This document shows positions 18,935 through 46,830 of a DNA stretch of 64,000 nt, piece after piece (position 1 is the stretch's first letter; every line of letters begins with the position of its first letter). The notes under the pieces were generated by a model that saw only the letters and a program-made list of their open reading frames with translations, ran no database searches and was not told the DNA's origin. Origin of the DNA: a virus. The position numbers and the translations under genes are program-made. The stretch spans positions 49,267 to 113,266 of IMG/VR virus record IMGVR_UViG_3300005613_000011; one strand, given 5' to 3'.

Positions 18935-19613
18935 TTGTGGCAAATACATAAAAGAATCAATAGATTCGATATTAACCCAAGTTTTTGATGATTTTGAGTT
19001 GATTATAGTAAACGATGGTTCTACTGATGATACGTCAGAAATTATCAGATCTTTTGATGATGACAGAATTATATTCATAGATCATGAAGAAAATGCAGGA
19101 ATTCCAATTCGAGCTAACGAAGCTATAGATATAGCAAAAGGAGACTATATAGCGATACACGATGGAGATGACATAAGCCTTCCTTTAAGATTAAGCGTAG
19201 AATTTTCTACTTTAAAATCTGATAAAAGTCTATTTTGTGTCGGTAGTTATGCTATAATAATTGATGATAATAGTAATGAGATAGATCGTTGGAGACATCC
19301 TCCAACGAATAATAATGATATGATTAATATGATCGCCAGGGGCAAGAATCCTGTAATAAATCCTTCTTCCATGTTTAAGAAGTCCGATTTTAACAAAGTC
19401 GGAAAATACACAACGGAGAAGAAATTTCAACTCGTTCACGATCTTGAGCTTTGGGGTAAATGCTTATTTTCCGGTCTGAGATTTTGCACAATAGAAATTC
19501 CATTAGTTAAATATAGGATTAATAATAATGGTTTAACATTTGGTAGAACATTAGAAATGAGGAAATCTCACCATTTATTGTTAGGAAAATGGAGAGAGGA
19601 AGGAAAATTATGA
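18906..19613 (+). CDS. Family 2 glycosyltransferase
   Basis: 235 residues counted from ATG 18906; a TTG three bases upstream is also in frame but ATG is preferred. Canonical GT2 features are visible: ITIITTVYNCGKYIKESIDS, the IVNDGSTDDT motif, and the DxD-type site in IAIHDGDDISLPLR, followed by a region with WGKCLFSG. It is short compared with usual GT2 enzymes and ends soon after the catalytic core. It overlaps the previous glycosyltransferase, and its TGA overlaps the following ATG (ATGA), which suggests translational coupling along the operon. Confidence 0.85.
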   Translation: MITIITTVYNCGKYIKESIDSILTQVFDDFELIIVNDGSTDDTSEIIRSFDDDRIIFIDHEENAGIPIRANEAIDIAKGDYIAIHDGDDISLPLRLSVEFSTLKSDKSLFCVGSYAIIIDDNSNEIDRWRHPPTNNNDMINMIARGKNPVINPSSMFKKSDFNKVGKYTTEKKFQLVHDLELWGKCLFSGLRFCTIEIPLVKYRINNNGLTFGRTLEMRKSHHLLLGKWREEGKL

Positions 19614-21853
19614 GTAATAAAGATAAAAAGTTTAAATTTGGACCTAGAACATGGACGGAACATGAAGAGATATTATTATATTGTATGAGGGAAGACGGAG
19701 TAAATTATCGTATTATTGCATCCGAATTATATCGTTCTATAGATTCCTGTGAGAAGAAATACAGAAATACAAACTGGTCGCAAAAATCGTTTTACGATCA
19801 CCAAAAACACACGGTTAAAGAAGGACTAAAAAGAGGATATCTTGAACGCATTACGCAGTTAAGAGATAAGAGACTTTATGATTATAAAGTAAAAGCAGAC
19901 ATTATAGCTGATCGTATTGCCCGAGCTGTTGAGGGATTGCCAAGAGTTCCAAAACCAAGATATAGTCGCAAAAAAAGCCATAAAAAAGACCATATAGAAG
20001 ATGTAGGTCTTGTTTTGAGCGATTGCCATATTGGTCAGGAATTCACTATGGAAGAAACAGGCAATTTATGCGAATATAATTTGCAAGTGTTTAAGCGTAG
20101 GATTAAAAATCTTATGTATGCCTCTGCGGATATTGTTGAATTGCATTCTCAGTTGTACCAATTGCCAACAATGCATATTTTTTGTTTGGGAGATATAGTA
20201 GCTGGCATGAACGATGTTGGTGCTTGGTCGCCAACTTATATTAATATGCCTATTTTCGAGCAGTTTGTAGAAGGTGTCGAGGCGATATCTGATACTATTA
20301 ATTATTGGCTTGGTATTTTTGATAATATTAGATTTTATGGTGTCTACGGAAATCATGGAAAATGTCAAGACAAAAATACAAAAATTCTAACACCAGATGG
20401 ATATAAAACTTACGACCAAATAAAAGAAGGTGATCTTGTTGGCACGGTTAATATGGAAAGTAACAAATTTGAGTTCCAACCAGTACAAAAAGTTCATATT
20501 TATGAAAACGAACCAAATCTTGTGGTTGGCAAGACTGCTTCTGTAGAAATAAAGCAAACATTAGATCATGATGTTTTAATTTATAGTCGGGATAAAAAAA
20601 GACTAAGCAAGGTTAAAGCTAAGTCATTAGTGAAAAATACTAGTACGCATCATATAATACCAGTTTCTACACGTTCTAATAATGCTGATTACAATATATC
20701 AGATGACATGTTACGTTTGTTGGGTATCATTATGACAGATGGCAGATATCCTCCTAGATGTAAAAGTATGATGATTTATCAATCAAAGATTAAAAATATA
20801 AACAAAATAAAGAAATTACTTGAAAGATTAGGTTGCGAATTTAAGATATATAAAAGAAAAAAGAATGTTGATTCAATTTTAGGGAAAAAACTTAAATCAA
20901 CTAAAATAGAAAATTGTTTTTATATTAATTCTTCTGATCTGACACGAGAAATAAGAGATCTTTTACCGATTAAAGAATCTATACCTAATTGGATGTATAA
21001 TTTATCTGATCGTCAAGTTAAAATTATTTTAGAATATATAGTACTTGGAGATGGTAGTGTTAGAAAAAAGAAAAAACGTAAAGACGGAAACATAAGAAAA
21101 GGAGGGTTAGATATAATCTGGGGTAAAAAAGATTTTATTGAATCTCTTGCAGGTTTGTTAATCTCTCATAATATCTCTTGTTCACTAAACAAACATAAAA
21201 GAAAAAAACATAATTCGCAAACAAAAAATCAAGAAAATTGGTATTTGCAAATTAAGAAGCGAGCATGTTATTGTATCAAGTCAAGCCAATTTAATATTGT
21301 TGATTATAATGATACTGTATGGTGTGTAACTGTTGAGAATGGAACTATTGCTGTTCTTAGTGGCCAGGGAGACGCATATTTTACTGGTAATTGCGCTTCT
21401 AAGGGTGTTGAGAAAGAATATGTCAACTGGGATTATATGTGTTACCAGTTTTTGATGGCAAGATTTAAAGGCAATCCAAGGATAGAATTTATTGTACCTA
21501 AGACATGGTGGATATTCGAAAAAATAAGAAATCATAAATTCCTTATTGTCCATGGTGACGATCTAAGAGGGGTGACTTGGCCTGCTCGTAATCTCGTTAA
21601 TTACGAACAAAAAATGATGTCCATCCTTAAGGACATACCAAATTATACGATAGCCGGGCATTATCATAGTGCAGCGGAACTTTCTACTAATCATGGTAAA
21701 GTGATGCTAAACGGTGGATTTGTAGGAGGTGATATTTATTCGTTGAAGAATCTCCAGAAATCTTCAAAGGCAGAACAAAAAATATTTGGTATTCACGATA
21801 AGCGCGGTGTTACTTGGACATATGATCTTGATTTAAATGATGACCGGAGGTGA
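19610..21853 (+). CDS. Metallophosphoesterase with N-terminal HTH and an in-frame intein
   Basis: Start chosen at ATG 19610 because AGGAAGG lies six bases upstream and the ATGA overlap couples it to the previous gene; an in-frame ATG 21 bases earlier is less likely. Residues about 12-55 look like a Myb/HTH helix-turn-helix (WTEHEEILLYCM ... RSIDSCEKKYRNTNW). Calcineurin-type phosphoesterase motifs follow: SDCHIG (Asp138, His140), LGDIVAG, GNHGK (His249), VHGDD and AGHYHSAAEL. The intein (residues 252-594) interrupts the chain directly after the GNH catalytic motif, so the enzyme should be inactive until splicing. The product is probably a DNA or nucleotide phosphoesterase related to SbcD-type proteins. 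The substrate is unknown. Confidence 0.8.
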   Translation: MSNKDKKFKFGPRTWTEHEEILLYCMREDGVNYRIIASELYRSIDSCEKKYRNTNWSQKSFYDHQKHTVKEGLKRGYLERITQLRDKRLYDYKVKADIIADRIARAVEGLPRVPKPRYSRKKSHKKDHIEDVGLVLSDCHIGQEFTMEETGNLCEYNLQVFKRRIKNLMYASADIVELHSQLYQLPTMHIFCLGDIVAGMNDVGAWSPTYINMPIFEQFVEGVEAISDTINYWLGIFDNIRFYGVYGNHGKCQDKNTKILTPDGYKTYDQIKEGDLVGTVNMESNKFEFQPVQKVHIYENEPNLVVGKTASVEIKQTLDHDVLIYSRDKKRLSKVKAKSLVKNTSTHHIIPVSTRSNNADYNISDDMLRLLGIIMTDGRYPPRCKSMMIYQSKIKNINKIKKLLERLGCEFKIYKRKKNVDSILGKKLKSTKIENCFYINSSDLTREIRDLLPIKESIPNWMYNLSDRQVKIILEYIVLGDGSVRKKKKRKDGNIRKGGLDIIWGKKDFIESLAGLLISHNISCSLNKHKRKKHNSQTKNQENWYLQIKKRACYCIKSSQFNIVDYNDTVWCVTVENGTIAVLSGQGDAYFTGNCASKGVEKEYVNWDYMCYQFLMARFKGNPRIEFIVPKTWWIFEKIRNHKFLIVHGDDLRGVTWPARNLVNYEQKMMSILKDIPNYTIAGHYHSAAELSTNHGKVMLNGGFVGGDIYSLKNLQKSSKAEQKIFGIHDKRGVTWTYDLDLNDDRR
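20363..21391 (+). mobile_element. Intein with LAGLIDADG endonuclease in the metallophosphoesterase
   Basis: 343 residues starting at Cys (CQDKNTKILTPDGYKTYD, block A) and ending VLSGQGDAYFTGN before a Cys +1 residue. A block B TxxH-like motif is present (TLDHDVLIY). Two LAGLIDADG-type motifs (LLGIIMTDG and EYIVLGDGS) indicate a homing endonuclease, so it is probably a full, mobile intein. The penultimate residue is Gly instead of the usual His, which is seen in some active inteins. The insertion point is immediately C-terminal to the GNH metal-binding motif of the host protein. Confidence 0.85.
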
Positions 21854-29228: not shown

Positions 29229-30230
29229 ATGCCAAAGGAAAATGTGGATCAACACGAAGATGCATACAAGATTATGGGAACAAAGGAATTCAATGACGAG
29301 CTAATAGCTCTTCTAAAGATCCGCGCTCCGGTTGTTTTTCTCACCTGTCGTGAAGAAAAACGTATGCTGAATTATTTTAGGCATCTTTCTGAGGCTAGAG
29401 GTTTTAAGACGTATACGTGGGATCTTTGTAACGGTATTAGAAATCTGATCAGCGGCAAGCAGGAAAAAACAACTGGGGACGATTGTACTGAACCAGACAA
29501 TGCCTTGAATGTCATGATAGAGGAAGCAAGTAATGACAAAGATCAAAGAGTGAAGCTTGAAGCAAGCAAAATAAAAGGTAAGATTTATTTATTGCTGGAT
29601 TTTTATAAGTTTCTAGATGAACCAACTACTGAGCGTAGAATAAAAGAGTTTTCCAAAATCGATTCTATGACAACTATTATTTTGACCGGCCCGACTCTTG
29701 ATTTGCCAGTAAGTATTGAGAATCTATTCAGCGTCCTTGATTTTCCTTACCCTAACAATGAGGAAATCAGAGGTTCGATTACTAATCTTTTGAAAGCTGT
29801 TAAAAAGGAAAAGGTTGATCTGCATGATAAGTTGCAGAAACAGTTTAAAAAGGAACAGCATGAGATAATTGGTTCGGTTACAGGTTTGACACTTTCTGAA
29901 GCTCAAAAAGCGTTGTCTAAATCTGTTGTTGTAAAAGCCTCATTTGATATACCATCTATTCTTGCGGAGAAGAAGCAATATATTCGCAGGCGTGGTATTT
30001 TGGAATATTACGAACCCAATCTGACTATGGCAGATGTTGGTGGTTTGCATAGAATGGTCAGGTGGTTGAAGCACAGAAAGCTGGCGTTTAGTCCCGAAGC
30101 CAGAGAGTTCGGGATTCCAGCCTTAAAAGGTTTTCTTGCAGCTGGTGTTCCTGGATGCGTACTAGCTGATACGAAAATCATGATAAAAAAGATTTCTAGC
30201 GAAGGAAAACATAAAGTTATCGAATTTTAG
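29229..30230 (+). CDS. Ycf46-like AAA+ ATPase, N-terminal part plus N-intein
   Basis: 333 residues. Residues 1-309 are the N-extein: an N-terminal domain (VVFLTCREEKRMLNYFRHLS, ILTGPTLDLP), then the AAA+ entry typical of Ycf46 (VRWLKHRKLAFSPEAREFGI, GVPG). Cys310 opens an intein (CVLADTKIMIKKISSEGK) exactly inside the Walker A P-loop. The frame stops at TAG 30228-30230 after only 24 intein residues. The rest of the intein and the rest of the ATPase are in the next gene, one base out of phase. Trans-splicing would give GVPG-SGKS, a correct P-loop. Either a natural split intein or a one-base insertion in the T4 tract 30225-30228 explains this. Confidence 0.85.
   Translation: MPKENVDQHEDAYKIMGTKEFNDELIALLKIRAPVVFLTCREEKRMLNYFRHLSEARGFKTYTWDLCNGIRNLISGKQEKTTGDDCTEPDNALNVMIEEASNDKDQRVKLEASKIKGKIYLLLDFYKFLDEPTTERRIKEFSKIDSMTTIILTGPTLDLPVSIENLFSVLDFPYPNNEEIRGSITNLLKAVKKEKVDLHDKLQKQFKKEQHEIIGSVTGLTLSEAQKALSKSVVVKASFDIPSILAEKKQYIRRRGILEYYEPNLTMADVGGLHRMVRWLKHRKLAFSPEAREFGIPALKGFLAAGVPGCVLADTKIMIKKISSEGKHKVIEF
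30156..30227 (+). mobile_element. N-terminal intein segment (24 aa) in the AAA+ P-loop
   Basis: Begins with Cys and block A (CVLADTKIM) and ends HKVIEF before TAG. Its size resembles atypical split inteins whose N-part is about 25 residues, such as the phage TerL intein from Ace Lake metagenomes. With one T removed from 30225-30228 it would run on into the C-part as a 168-residue mini-intein. No endonuclease is present. Confidence 0.75.
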
Positions 30231-30282
30231 AAGTTTAAGAGAGATTTCAGAAAACCACCAAGAAGCAGATGGAGAAACTATT

Positions 30283-30660
30283 ATGCAAATTGGAGAAGAA
30301 ACAGAGATTACAATATCTGATTTTTTTAAATTAACAGCAAAAGAAGGAGGGAAATACAAGGTGAGTACACCAGATGGGTGGTGTGATTTAGGAGAACTGG
30401 TCAAGAAAAAGAACAAGAAGTGTTATTCGATTAGGCTTGATAATGGAATGGCAATGGCTGGTTCTGAAGATCACTTAGTTGAGACAAAAGAAGGATGGAA
30501 AAAACTCAAAGATTTAGAAGTTGAAAACGATATGATTTTAACGTCTGATGGTTTTTGTGAGTTAGTTACTATAGAAAGTATTGGTGTTCATGATACTTAT
30601 GATTTCGAGGTTTTGAGTGAAAAACACAGGTATTTTGCGAATGGAATTGTATCACACAAT
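30283..30660 (+). mobile_element. C-terminal intein segment (126 aa)
   Basis: Carries the splicing blocks F and G (FEVLSEKHRYF and NGIVSHN) and a block-B-like SEDHL, and ends in the His-Asn pair required for cyclisation, followed by Ser +1. It completes the 24-residue segment at 30156. The insertion point is inside the host Walker A motif. Confidence 0.8.
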
Positions 30661-31386
30661 TCAGGTAAAAGCTTGATTGCAAAGGCATGTTCTAGCGAAT
30701 ACGGGATTCCTTTGCTCCGTCTTGATTTTGGAGCGTTGTTTAGATCACATGTTGGAGAATCAGAGGCCACAACAAGAGATGCTATTAAACTGGCCGAGGC
30801 ATGTGCTCCGAGCGCCCTTTGGTGTGATGAAGTAGAAAAAGGCTTGTCAGGAACTAAGTCAAGCGGTTCGACGGACGGTGGTACTACCGATAGGGTTGTG
30901 TCTACTTTTTTGACTTGGATGCAAGAAAAGACATCTGAGGTCTTTGTGGTGGCAACTGCAAATGATATAGAAAAGATTCCCGTTCCATTTTACAGGCGTT
31001 TTGATGAAATCTTTTTCGTAGATTTTCCGAATAAGGAAGAAAGGGTAGAAATCGCTCAGGTGTTGTTGAGAAGATACAAAAGGGATTATAAGAAATTTGA
31101 TTGTGAAAGAATTGCTGAACTATCTAATTTGTATACCGGATCAGAAATAGAGAAGGCAATTACTATCGGGCTGTTTGAAGCGTTCGAACATAAAAGAAAA
31201 TTGACTACGGATGATATTGTCAATGCTTTTAATACGTTTACTCCTCAATATAAAATGAGGGAAGAGTATTTTGATAATATGAGAGATCATGCACAATCTT
31301 GTGGTTTTGTATTTGCGAACGAAGAAGTAAAAGAAAGTGCTGAAGGCGCCGGGGGCGATAGTATAGGAATAGATTTAAGCGAATAA
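30283..31386 (+). CDS. C-intein plus C-terminal part of the Ycf46-like AAA+ ATPase
   Basis: ATG 30283 has GGAG eight bases upstream. Residues 1-126 are the C-intein: GEETEITISDFFKL, SEDHLVETKEGWKKL (block B-like), TYDFEVLSEKHRYF (block F), ANGIVSHN (block G) before Ser127. Residues 127-367 continue the ATPase: SGKSLIAKACSSEYGIPLLR, Walker B ALWCDEVEKG, FLTWMQEKTSEVFVVATAND (sensor 1), RRFDEIFFVDFPNKEER (arginine finger region). These match the Ycf46 family, whose biological role is poorly known. The same frame is open upstream of this ATG back past the previous stop, so the start may be artificial if the upstream gene has a one-base error. Confidence 0.8.
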   Translation: MQIGEETEITISDFFKLTAKEGGKYKVSTPDGWCDLGELVKKKNKKCYSIRLDNGMAMAGSEDHLVETKEGWKKLKDLEVENDMILTSDGFCELVTIESIGVHDTYDFEVLSEKHRYFANGIVSHNSGKSLIAKACSSEYGIPLLRLDFGALFRSHVGESEATTRDAIKLAEACAPSALWCDEVEKGLSGTKSSGSTDGGTTDRVVSTFLTWMQEKTSEVFVVATANDIEKIPVPFYRRFDEIFFVDFPNKEERVEIAQVLLRRYKRDYKKFDCERIAELSNLYTGSEIEKAITIGLFEAFEHKRKLTTDDIVNAFNTFTPQYKMREEYFDNMRDHAQSCGFVFANEEVKESAEGAGGDSIGIDLSE

Positions 31387-44490: not shown

Positions 44491-46830
44491 ATGGCTAAAA
44501 ATAAAAGTGATATAATAGTTGACAATTTGAAAGGTTTTATTCGCAAAGGCGCTTCTTCTACTCCCGAAGGTTACGTTCCTACTGGTCATTTCAGTCTAGA
44601 TTTCGTAATCAATCACGGAGAGCTACCAGAGAAAATAGATTTATCTGAATTGGAAGGATATGATCCTTCTGAAAATCTGGGTATTCCCCTTGGTAAGCTT
44701 GTAATGTTGTACGGAGAAGAGGGAGGGGGGAAAAGCTCAATTGCATACAGAATATCTGGTTATGCTCAAAAGTTAGGTTATCCTGTTGCATGGTTGGATA
44801 CCGAACATAGTTTTGCAGAGAATCTCGCTAAGATCAATGGGGTTGATGTAGACGAGTTGTATTATTCTACAATGTCTAATCCTAAAGATCCTGACAAGGT
44901 TTATTTTGCAGAAGATGTTTTTGATTCTATTATTGAATTGATTAAGTCTGGTGTCAAAGTAATTATTCTCGATTCGGTTGCGAATCTTGTTCCAAAAGAA
45001 AGGATGGAAGGTAGTGCTGAGAAGATAATTGTTGGGAAACTCGCCAGATTGATGTCTGAAAATCTTGGTAAATTGGTTGCTTATGCCGCAAAGTTTGGAA
45101 CTTTATTGGTTTTTATTAATCAATTAAGATTCAAGATAGGCATAATGTTTGGATGTTTCCATTATAATTCTCGTGTGGTTTTATCTGATGGGACAACGAA
45201 AAAAATTGGTACTATTGTCAATAATAAATTAGATTTGGAAGTTATGTCTTATAATCCTGATACAGGAGATATAGAGCCAAAGAAGATTATAGATTGGCAT
45301 GATAATGGTAGTTTAACAGAAGATGAATGCTTTTTGAATTTTGTTGTAGAAAAACACGGAGGGAATGGAAGGACTAGGTTTTCATGTACTCCAAATCATA
45401 AAATTTTTGTCCCTGAATCTAACGAAAAGTGTTCTAACTATAGCAAAACTATTAGTGCTGGAGATTTGGAGATTGGAGACGAAATATTAGTATCTCAACC
45501 TTACTATTTAAATGACGTGCAAAGACAAATTGTTTATGGGTCTATTCTTGGAGATGGGAATATAAGACCTGGTAGATATAATAGTTCTTGTAGTAATTTG
45601 AGGATTGGTCATGGTCGAGAACAAAAAGATTATTGTCATTGGAAGCAGGAAATTCTTGAGCCTTGGATTGGGTATAGTAAAAACAAGGAAGATAGATACG
45701 ATTTTGAAACTATCCCTATGTTAGAATTGACGAAATTGCAGTATTCCACTAAATATATAACACCAGATTCTAGAGATCCTAGAAATAAAGAAAAAATTAT
45801 TCCAGACGAAATTATTGATAATTTAGGTGAATTAGGGCTTGCTATTTGGTATCTTGATGATGGAACATTTGGTGGTCATTATTCTAAGTGGGGAAATGGT
45901 AAGTCTACTATTTGTTGTATTAAATTTTCCAATAGAGATAAAATGATGAAGACTTTTGATAAATTTGGTTTATGTCCTAAGTTAAAAAAAGTTGGATTTT
46001 TCTTTAATTCTGAAGATACAAGAAAATTACATTCTATTATATGTAAATATGTTCCACCTTGTATGGAATATAAAATTCATCCTAACTTTAGAGGTAAATA
46101 TGATTTTGATATTGACGATCAAGATGACAATATAAAAGAATTGAGAGCAATATCAGCAAAGATCATTGATATTCATGAGAAGGCACCTACAAGAACTAAA
46201 AAGAAATTTGATTTAACGATAGAAGATAATGCATCATATATTGTTGATGGAGCTATAGTCCATAATTCTCCGGAAACTACTCCTGGTGGTATGAGTTTGA
46301 AGCACAATTCATCCTTGATTATCAAGATCACAAAGAAGAAAAGTAGAGATGCCGAAATAGAAATTCCTGGCGAAGATGGAAAAATGAAGCTTATCGGCAG
46401 GAAGTCATACATGAAGGTTGAAAAGAATAGGTTTGCCAAGCCTTGTTTTGAGAATATAGAAGTTCCTATTTATTACATGGAATATTTTCCCAACATAGAA
46501 GAAATAATGTTTGAAACTGGTCGCCAGTTAAAAGTTATTTCTGTCAGGAAGGGAGTATTCAAGTGGACTGATCAAAAAGGCGAAAAACATGAAGCTGAAG
46601 GTAGGTCTGATTTTATAGAGCATATAAAATATAACGAACTTCGGTATTCATTGGCGAAGCATCTCTACGATGTTGCGAATGAAAGCGAAACTATTTTGCC
46701 TCCAGAAATAGTTAAGTGGTTGAAAAATCATGAAGTTAATAATAGTGGTAACAATGATGATGAGAAACCAACCGCCGAGAAGGAGACTGCCGGAAGTGGA
46801 GAGGAAGAAAGTACTCAATCTGGCGATTGA
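44491..46830 (+). CDS. recA: RecA recombinase with an in-frame intein
   Basis: 779 residues including a 371-residue intein. N-extein: GASSTPEGYVPTGHFSLDFV, Walker A YGEEGGGKSSIAYR (about 73-86), AWLDTEHSFAENLAK, VIILDSVANLVPK (Walker B), FINQLRFKIGIMFG (loop L2 entry). The intein begins at Cys222 and ends Asn592. C-extein: SPETTPGGMSLKHNSSLIIK completes loop L2, followed by about 170 residues and an acidic tail. It is strand exchange and recombination repair for the phage. The tail of this gene overlaps the primase TOPRIM gene. Function depends on splicing, because the intein cuts the DNA-binding loop. Confidence 0.85.
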   Translation: MAKNKSDIIVDNLKGFIRKGASSTPEGYVPTGHFSLDFVINHGELPEKIDLSELEGYDPSENLGIPLGKLVMLYGEEGGGKSSIAYRISGYAQKLGYPVAWLDTEHSFAENLAKINGVDVDELYYSTMSNPKDPDKVYFAEDVFDSIIELIKSGVKVIILDSVANLVPKERMEGSAEKIIVGKLARLMSENLGKLVAYAAKFGTLLVFINQLRFKIGIMFGCFHYNSRVVLSDGTTKKIGTIVNNKLDLEVMSYNPDTGDIEPKKIIDWHDNGSLTEDECFLNFVVEKHGGNGRTRFSCTPNHKIFVPESNEKCSNYSKTISAGDLEIGDEILVSQPYYLNDVQRQIVYGSILGDGNIRPGRYNSSCSNLRIGHGREQKDYCHWKQEILEPWIGYSKNKEDRYDFETIPMLELTKLQYSTKYITPDSRDPRNKEKIIPDEIIDNLGELGLAIWYLDDGTFGGHYSKWGNGKSTICCIKFSNRDKMMKTFDKFGLCPKLKKVGFFFNSEDTRKLHSIICKYVPPCMEYKIHPNFRGKYDFDIDDQDDNIKELRAISAKIIDIHEKAPTRTKKKFDLTIEDNASYIVDGAIVHNSPETTPGGMSLKHNSSLIIKITKKKSRDAEIEIPGEDGKMKLIGRKSYMKVEKNRFAKPCFENIEVPIYYMEYFPNIEEIMFETGRQLKVISVRKGVFKWTDQKGEKHEAEGRSDFIEHIKYNELRYSLAKHLYDVANESETILPPEIVKWLKNHEVNNSGNNDDEKPTAEKETAGSGEEESTQSGD
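45154..46266 (+). mobile_element. Intein with LAGLIDADG endonuclease in RecA
   Basis: Residues 222-592: it begins CFHYNSRVVLSDGTTKKIG (block A), has block B-like FSCTPNHKIFVP, LAGLIDADG motifs in VYGSILGDGNIR and AIWYLDDGTFG, then block F/G TIEDNASYIVDGAIVHN before Ser +1. It sits between MFG and SPETT of DNA-binding loop L2. Among known RecA inteins the M. leprae one is, as I recall, at this same place. The endonuclease motifs are intact, so it should be mobile. Confidence 0.85.

What the first reader, a model, noticed from the sequence alone, without database searches (positions are those of the whole stretch)
29229..31386. AAA+ ATPase with an intein inside its Walker A loop that is either split between two genes or broken by one base
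The Ycf46-like ATPase is cut at GVPG|SGKS by an intein. The N-part is only 24 residues and ends at TAG. The C-part (126 residues, with block F and a His-Asn end) starts 52 bases later in the +1 frame with its own GGAG site. If real, this is a natural trans-splicing intein of the rare short-N type, acting as a switch on an ATPase that has no P-loop before splicing. The alternative is that one extra T in the TTTT tract at 30225-30228 breaks a single 168-residue mini-intein, since the frame is open between the parts.
Basis: partly seen in the sequence, partly recalled or inferred. Interest (0 to 1): 0.85.

Follow-up and report, generated by a model that had tools for sequence, protein, structure and literature searches.

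The report
Split intein with decayed nuclease scar
A phage ATPase is encoded in two genes whose products are predicted to be joined by a naturally split intein, and the short gap between the genes is the scar of a lost homing-nuclease gene that still sits between the halves in related phages; this explains the apparent broken frame and shows how such split proteins arise and decay.

Summary
A AAA+ ATPase is cut inside Walker A (GVPG|SGKS) by an intein whose 24-residue N-part ends at TAG; a 126-residue C-part starts 52 bases on with its own ATG and GGAG.

Relatives argue that the split is real and inherited. Two viral contigs with the same ATPase (L002, L012) and one with another AAA ATPase (L036) have the same split, with an intact ~305-residue homing-endonuclease gene (NUMOD3 plus TnsA-like PD-(D/E)XK nuclease) between the halves. 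The window's gap holds a 19-base exact piece of that nuclease's catalytic FRSLRE codons (0 of 5000 shuffles). Two more relatives (L121, L122) are split, nuclease-less, with different nuclease remnants in the gap. A third (L125) is one frame with a nuclease remnant as linker: a natural re-fusion. IntN is 23-24 residues in all six split cases. AlphaFold and sequence searches both put the atypically split VidaL intein closest.

So this is most likely a trans-splicing intein whose nuclease was deleted. The extra-T error is not strictly excluded, because the deletion junction abuts the TTTT, but it is unlikely. The regulatory switch is unsupported. New member of a known kind.

The parts
29229..30155 (+). 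N-extein: N-terminal part of the AAA+ ATPase up to GVPG of Walker A
   Evidence: phrog_8638 positions 12-316 of 568; 38-49% identical to L002 and L012 N-parts
30156..30230 (+). IntN, 24 residues CVLADTKIMIKKISSEGKHKVIEF, then TAG stop (30228-30230)
   Evidence: Translation; IntN is 24, 24, 24, 23 and 24 residues in L002, L012, L036, L121, L122
30224..30249 (+). Relic of the homing-endonuclease gene: catalytic FRSLREIS codons (30226-30249); 30224-30242 is an exact 19-base match to the L002 nuclease gene
   Evidence: BLAST and longest-match tests: 0 of 5000 dinucleotide shuffles reach 19
30266..30285 (+). Probable 3' end of the lost nuclease gene, overlapping the IntC start; GGAG ribosome-binding site at 30271-30274
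   Evidence: By-eye similarity: L002 ...GGAAATTATTATGAATG and L012 ...AGATGGAGAATGCAATATG; suggestive only
30283..30660 (+). IntC, 126 residues from its own ATG to His-Asn
   Evidence: Start Met aligned in five other split loci; intein C-terminal model TIGR01443; VidaL match
30661..31386 (+). C-extein: SGKS of Walker A and the rest of the AAA domain
   Evidence: PF00004 4e-20; phrog_8638 positions 317-532

Best explanation
The window encodes a natural, atypically split class-1 intein (short IntN, VidaL type) in Walker A of a phage AAA+ ATPase. The intein was split in an ancestor that had a free-standing homing-endonuclease gene between the halves; that arrangement is still seen in relatives (arrangement shown, ancestry inferred). 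In this phage the nuclease gene was later deleted, leaving a 52-base scar with a piece of its catalytic motif (scar shown). The deletion kept a stop directly after IntN and the start site of IntC, so two polypeptides are still made (inferred). IntN and IntC assemble, Cys1, Ser+1 and His-Asn carry out splicing, and GVPG is joined to SGKS, giving the only intact P-loop (inferred from conserved residues, the predicted fold and VidaL). The nuclease family appears to home to Walker A coding DNA, which would explain the location (supported by its genomic neighbours, not tested).
For: Same split with an intact nuclease between the halves in L002, L012, L036. 19-base nuclease relic in the window gap, 0 of 5000 shuffles, best match in the whole 64 kb, same codon in about 20 of 27 nuclease homologues. 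Different nuclease relics in L121, L122 and L125. IntN length 23-24 in six loci. Splice residues conserved. Hint fold pLDDT 88.9, pTM 0.82, with only the relic region disordered; VidaL is the top hit by fold and sequence. No intact nuclease found elsewhere in the 113-kb record.
Against: Splicing itself is not shown. No relative closer than about 55% in the intein was found, so the exact deletion and the T count cannot be checked against a near sister. The relic is short and not significant at protein level (9 of 200 shuffles as good). Raw reads were not available.
Confidence: 0.85

Rival explanations
1. Sequencing or assembly error: in the real genome the two parts are one frame, a 168-residue intein whose linker is the nuclease scar, as in L125.
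For: Frame +1 is open through the gap; a relative with exactly such a re-fused intein exists (L125); the deletion junction abuts the T run, so homology to the nuclease cannot fix the number of Ts.
Against: Nuclease homologues also read TTTTAGAAG; the stop gives IntN the family length; the window otherwise tiles with long ORFs up to 2647 codons and no obvious second break; five other loci are split too.
Confidence: 0.06
2. Dead gene: deletion of the nuclease destroyed the split intein and the ATPase is no longer made.
For: The nuclease is gone and the gap is scarred.
Against: Both extein parts, all splice residues, the IntC start and its GGAG site are intact; no other stop in either half.
Confidence: 0.05
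3. A +1 ribosomal frameshift at TTT-TAG makes some single-chain precursor that splices in cis.
For: UUU followed by UAG allows the Phe tRNA to re-pair after a +1 slip; the frame beyond is open.
Against: No upstream Shine-Dalgarno-like stimulator as in prfB (seen by eye; prfB from general knowledge). The stops of L121 (GTT TTG TAA) and L122 (CAA AAA TAA) do not have this form. IntC has its own start site.
Confidence: 0.03
4. The split intein is kept as a regulatory switch of the ATPase.
For: Walker A is complete only after splicing (sequence).
Against: True of every P-loop intein; the site is explained by the nuclease's association with Walker A coding DNA; most homologues fetched have no intein.
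Confidence: 0.04

Closest known systems
VidaL split intein (PDB 6vgv; IntN 16 aa, PMC13014065)
   Same: Closest solved relative by sequence and fold; IntC begins at the same place, just before the first helix; short IntN.
   Different: IntN is 24 aa here; host is a AAA ATPase. The VidaL host (UvsX, from memory) was not checked here; PA5oct-type phages have a related RecA/UvsX split intein at GESG|SGKS with another nuclease gene between.
AceL-TerL and GOS-TerL split inteins (IntN 25 and 37 aa; PMC13014065, PMC11766414)
   Same: Natural split inteins with a short IntN from metagenomes.
   Different: They split after helix 1 (S2 site); here helix 1 is in IntC.
Fractured genes: split inteins with a free-standing homing endonuclease between the halves (Dassa 2009, paper not held; MIJ3 PolB example in PMC6892783)
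   Same: L002, L012 and L036 have this layout.
   Different: The window retains only a scar. The nuclease is NUMOD3 plus TnsA-like PD-(D/E)XK; the MIJ3 one is HNH.
P-loop inteins of phage ATPases (mycobacteriophage TerL, PMC5050341)
   Same: Insertion in Walker A.
   Different: The text of that paper does not mention split inteins; here the intein is split, at G|SGKS rather than between Lys and Thr.

Membership tests
Class-1 intein | Cys1 nucleophile, block B His, penultimate His and last Asn, Cys/Ser/Thr at +1 | tested here: met
   C1, SEDH, SHN, S+1; C1 present in all relatives, His and Asn invariant
Class-1 intein | Hint fold | tested here: met
   AlphaFold model pLDDT 88.9, pTM 0.82; top structural hits inspected are inteins or intein-like domains
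Class-1 intein | Self-splicing activity | not testable with these tools
   Needs expression
Naturally split intein | Two genes, each with one half and its own start | tested here: met
   same layout in five other loci
Naturally split intein | Trans-splicing shown | not testable with these tools
   Needs co-expression
VidaL-type atypical split (S1 site) | Short IntN of about 15-37 aa; split after the first strands and before helix 1 | tested here: met
   IntN 24 aa; model has strands 7-14 and 21-25, the relic region, then helix 53-63 in IntC; literature range
Fractured gene with homing endonuclease | Intact nuclease gene between the halves | tested here: not met
   Only a relic in the window; none elsewhere in the record. 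Met in L002, L012, L036
Fractured gene with homing endonuclease | Nuclease belongs to the family described by Dassa 2009 | not tested
   Paper not held; here Pfam gives NUMOD3 and TnsA-like
Ycf46-like ATPase | Ycf46 family membership of the extein | not tested
   Pfam AAA, CDC48/PAN/FtsH-like models and phrog_8638 match; none is named Ycf46

The most novel reading that the evidence does not exclude
Split inteins in Walker A are made and unmade by a nuclease family that homes to P-loop coding DNA. The nuclease arrives between the halves, is repeatedly lost by deletion, and its scar either keeps the protein split at almost exactly the same IntN length (window, L121, L122) or fuses it again (L125). 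The window is a nuclease-free intermediate that still depends on trans-splicing.
Probability: 0.6. Interest if true: 0.7.

Novelty: new member of a known kind. Interest (0 to 1): 0.6.

Why it matters
Nuclease-free split inteins are known, but how they lose their nuclease and whether they can re-fuse is rarely visible. Here one intein lineage shows nuclease-bearing, nuclease-scarred and re-fused states, so the order of events can be tested. It also adds natural short-IntN split inteins (24 aa, within chemical-synthesis range) as candidate protein-labelling tools, and a nuclease family associated with Walker A sites.

Tried and rejected
Close relatives by N-part alone in viral contigs: none. HEG and IntC alignments against one genome per bacterial/archaeal species: none. 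HEG in isolated phages: none. A second IntC scan of viral contigs added no loci. Group I intron as host of the HEG (suggested by a shared ATAGTCC upstream of it): no Rfam intron match at gathering score in 16 HEG loci, nothing credible in L002. Protein-level shuffling of the window relic was weak, so the claim rests on DNA. IntC tree: the seven-member clade is supported (96/93) but its inner order is unresolved, so transfer between ATPases is not proven. The Dassa 2009 paper is not held.

Full report
Observation. The window is part of a 113,266-base virus record. The two exteins are one protein: the intein-free family phrog_8638 (568 positions) matches the N-part at 12-316 and the C-extein at 317-532. 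Intein-free homologues read G(L/M/V)PG(C/S)GKS straight through.

Relatives settle most of it. Searching viral contigs with the C-part gave L002 and L012, in which the same ATPase is split at the same place, with a complete nuclease gene of 307 and 303 residues between the halves. Pfam finds NUMOD3 and a TnsA-like PD-(D/E)XK nuclease in it. A search with that nuclease gave L036, where a different AAA ATPase has the same three-part layout and an IntC 55% identical to the window's. A search with IntC gave L121 (same ATPase) and L122 (another AAA ATPase), both split without a nuclease gene, and L125 (same ATPase), in which the intein is one frame.

The gaps are scars. In L121 and L122 the 141- and 120-base gaps encode the C-terminal ~50 residues of the nuclease (scores 94 and 150; best of 200 shuffles 47 and 53). 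In L125 the linker YSPDFIVDGKVLVEVKPK is the nuclease's catalytic PD...ExK piece (64; best shuffle 37). In the window, 30224-30242 ATTTTAGAAGTTTAAGAGA is identical to the L002 nuclease codons for FRSLRE, which hold its likely first catalytic glutamate (assignment from the PD-(D/E)XK pattern, inferred). None of 5000 dinucleotide shuffles reached 19 bases, it is the best match in the 64-kb window, and about 20 of 27 nuclease homologues have their longest match at that very codon. At protein level the 8-residue relic alone is not significant (9 of 200 shuffles). The bases just before the IntC ATG resemble the nuclease's 3' end in L002 and L012 (by eye). So the gap is most simply two leftover nuclease fragments.

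What this says about the T tract. The nuclease homologues with this motif mostly also have four Ts here, the window's stop gives IntN the length found in relatives (24, 24, 24, 23, 24), and the rest of the window has long unbroken ORFs. These favour the sequence as deposited. They do not prove it: the junction between IntN and the nuclease fragment abuts the T run, and L125 shows that a re-fused form is possible. Only reads or very close relatives can close this.

How it most likely works. All splice residues are kept: Cys1, block B His, block F, His-Asn and Ser+1. A read-through of the stop, made only for folding, gave a confident Hint fold (pLDDT 88.9, pTM 0.82). Its one low-confidence stretch, residues 26-39, is the relic region. 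The closest solved structure by sequence and by fold is VidaL, a natural split intein with a 16-residue IntN. The expected reaction is trans-splicing of the two polypeptides, which rebuilds Walker A. This step is inferred, not shown.

Why Walker A. Outside inteins, homologues of the nuclease sit next to P-loop genes. With a strict pattern, 10 of 29 loci have a Walker A motif within about 250-300 bases of the nuclease gene, most of them just past its stop codon, against 7 of 521 background tiles. Several looser cases are visible in the flanks, including duplicated P-loop starts in L052 and L064. The 29 loci are not fully independent and the count was not corrected for relatedness. It suggests that the nuclease recognises P-loop coding DNA, which would explain the intein's site without a regulatory switch.

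Known versus new. Short-IntN natural split inteins (VidaL, AceL, GOS), P-loop inteins and split inteins with a free-standing nuclease are all known (PMC13014065, PMC11766414, PMC5050341, PMC6892783; Dassa 2009 as cited there). This is a new member. What I did not find in the papers searched (a limited search of an open-access library) is the series of nuclease-bearing, scarred and re-fused forms of one intein.

Noticed in passing
L041, L042, L043, L049, L052, L057, L058, L060-L065, L067, L070, L079: Nuclease homologues outside inteins sit beside Walker A coding sequences of P-loop genes (10 of 29 loci by strict pattern, background 7 of 521), as if the nuclease family homes to P-loops.
   Followed up: partly
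window 44491-46830: RecA with a large intein that carries a LAGLIDADG endonuclease (about residues 222-591): a second intein in the same phage, of the ordinary contiguous kind.
   Followed up: partly
window 19589-21853: Exonuclease-family protein (phrog_284) with a LAGLIDADG_3 match inside its C-terminal part; may hold a third intein. Ends not defined.
   Followed up: no
L012:6001-7623 and L121:5001-7415: A second intein just before Walker B of the same ATPase (AP|C...), also seen after the re-fused intein in L125.
   Followed up: no
L118 (NC_071039.1 134722-137728), L128, L129: PA5oct-type phages have RecA/UvsX split at GESG|SGKS: IntN of 17 residues, a 477-residue ORF, then IntC; annotated as hypothetical proteins and UvsX. 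L129 has a contiguous version.
   Followed up: partly
L002:5030-5080, L012:4825-4873, L036:3960-4003: A shared ATAGTCCA followed by possible hairpins between the IntN stop and the nuclease start; no Rfam intron match in L036 or L002; meaning unknown.
   Followed up: partly
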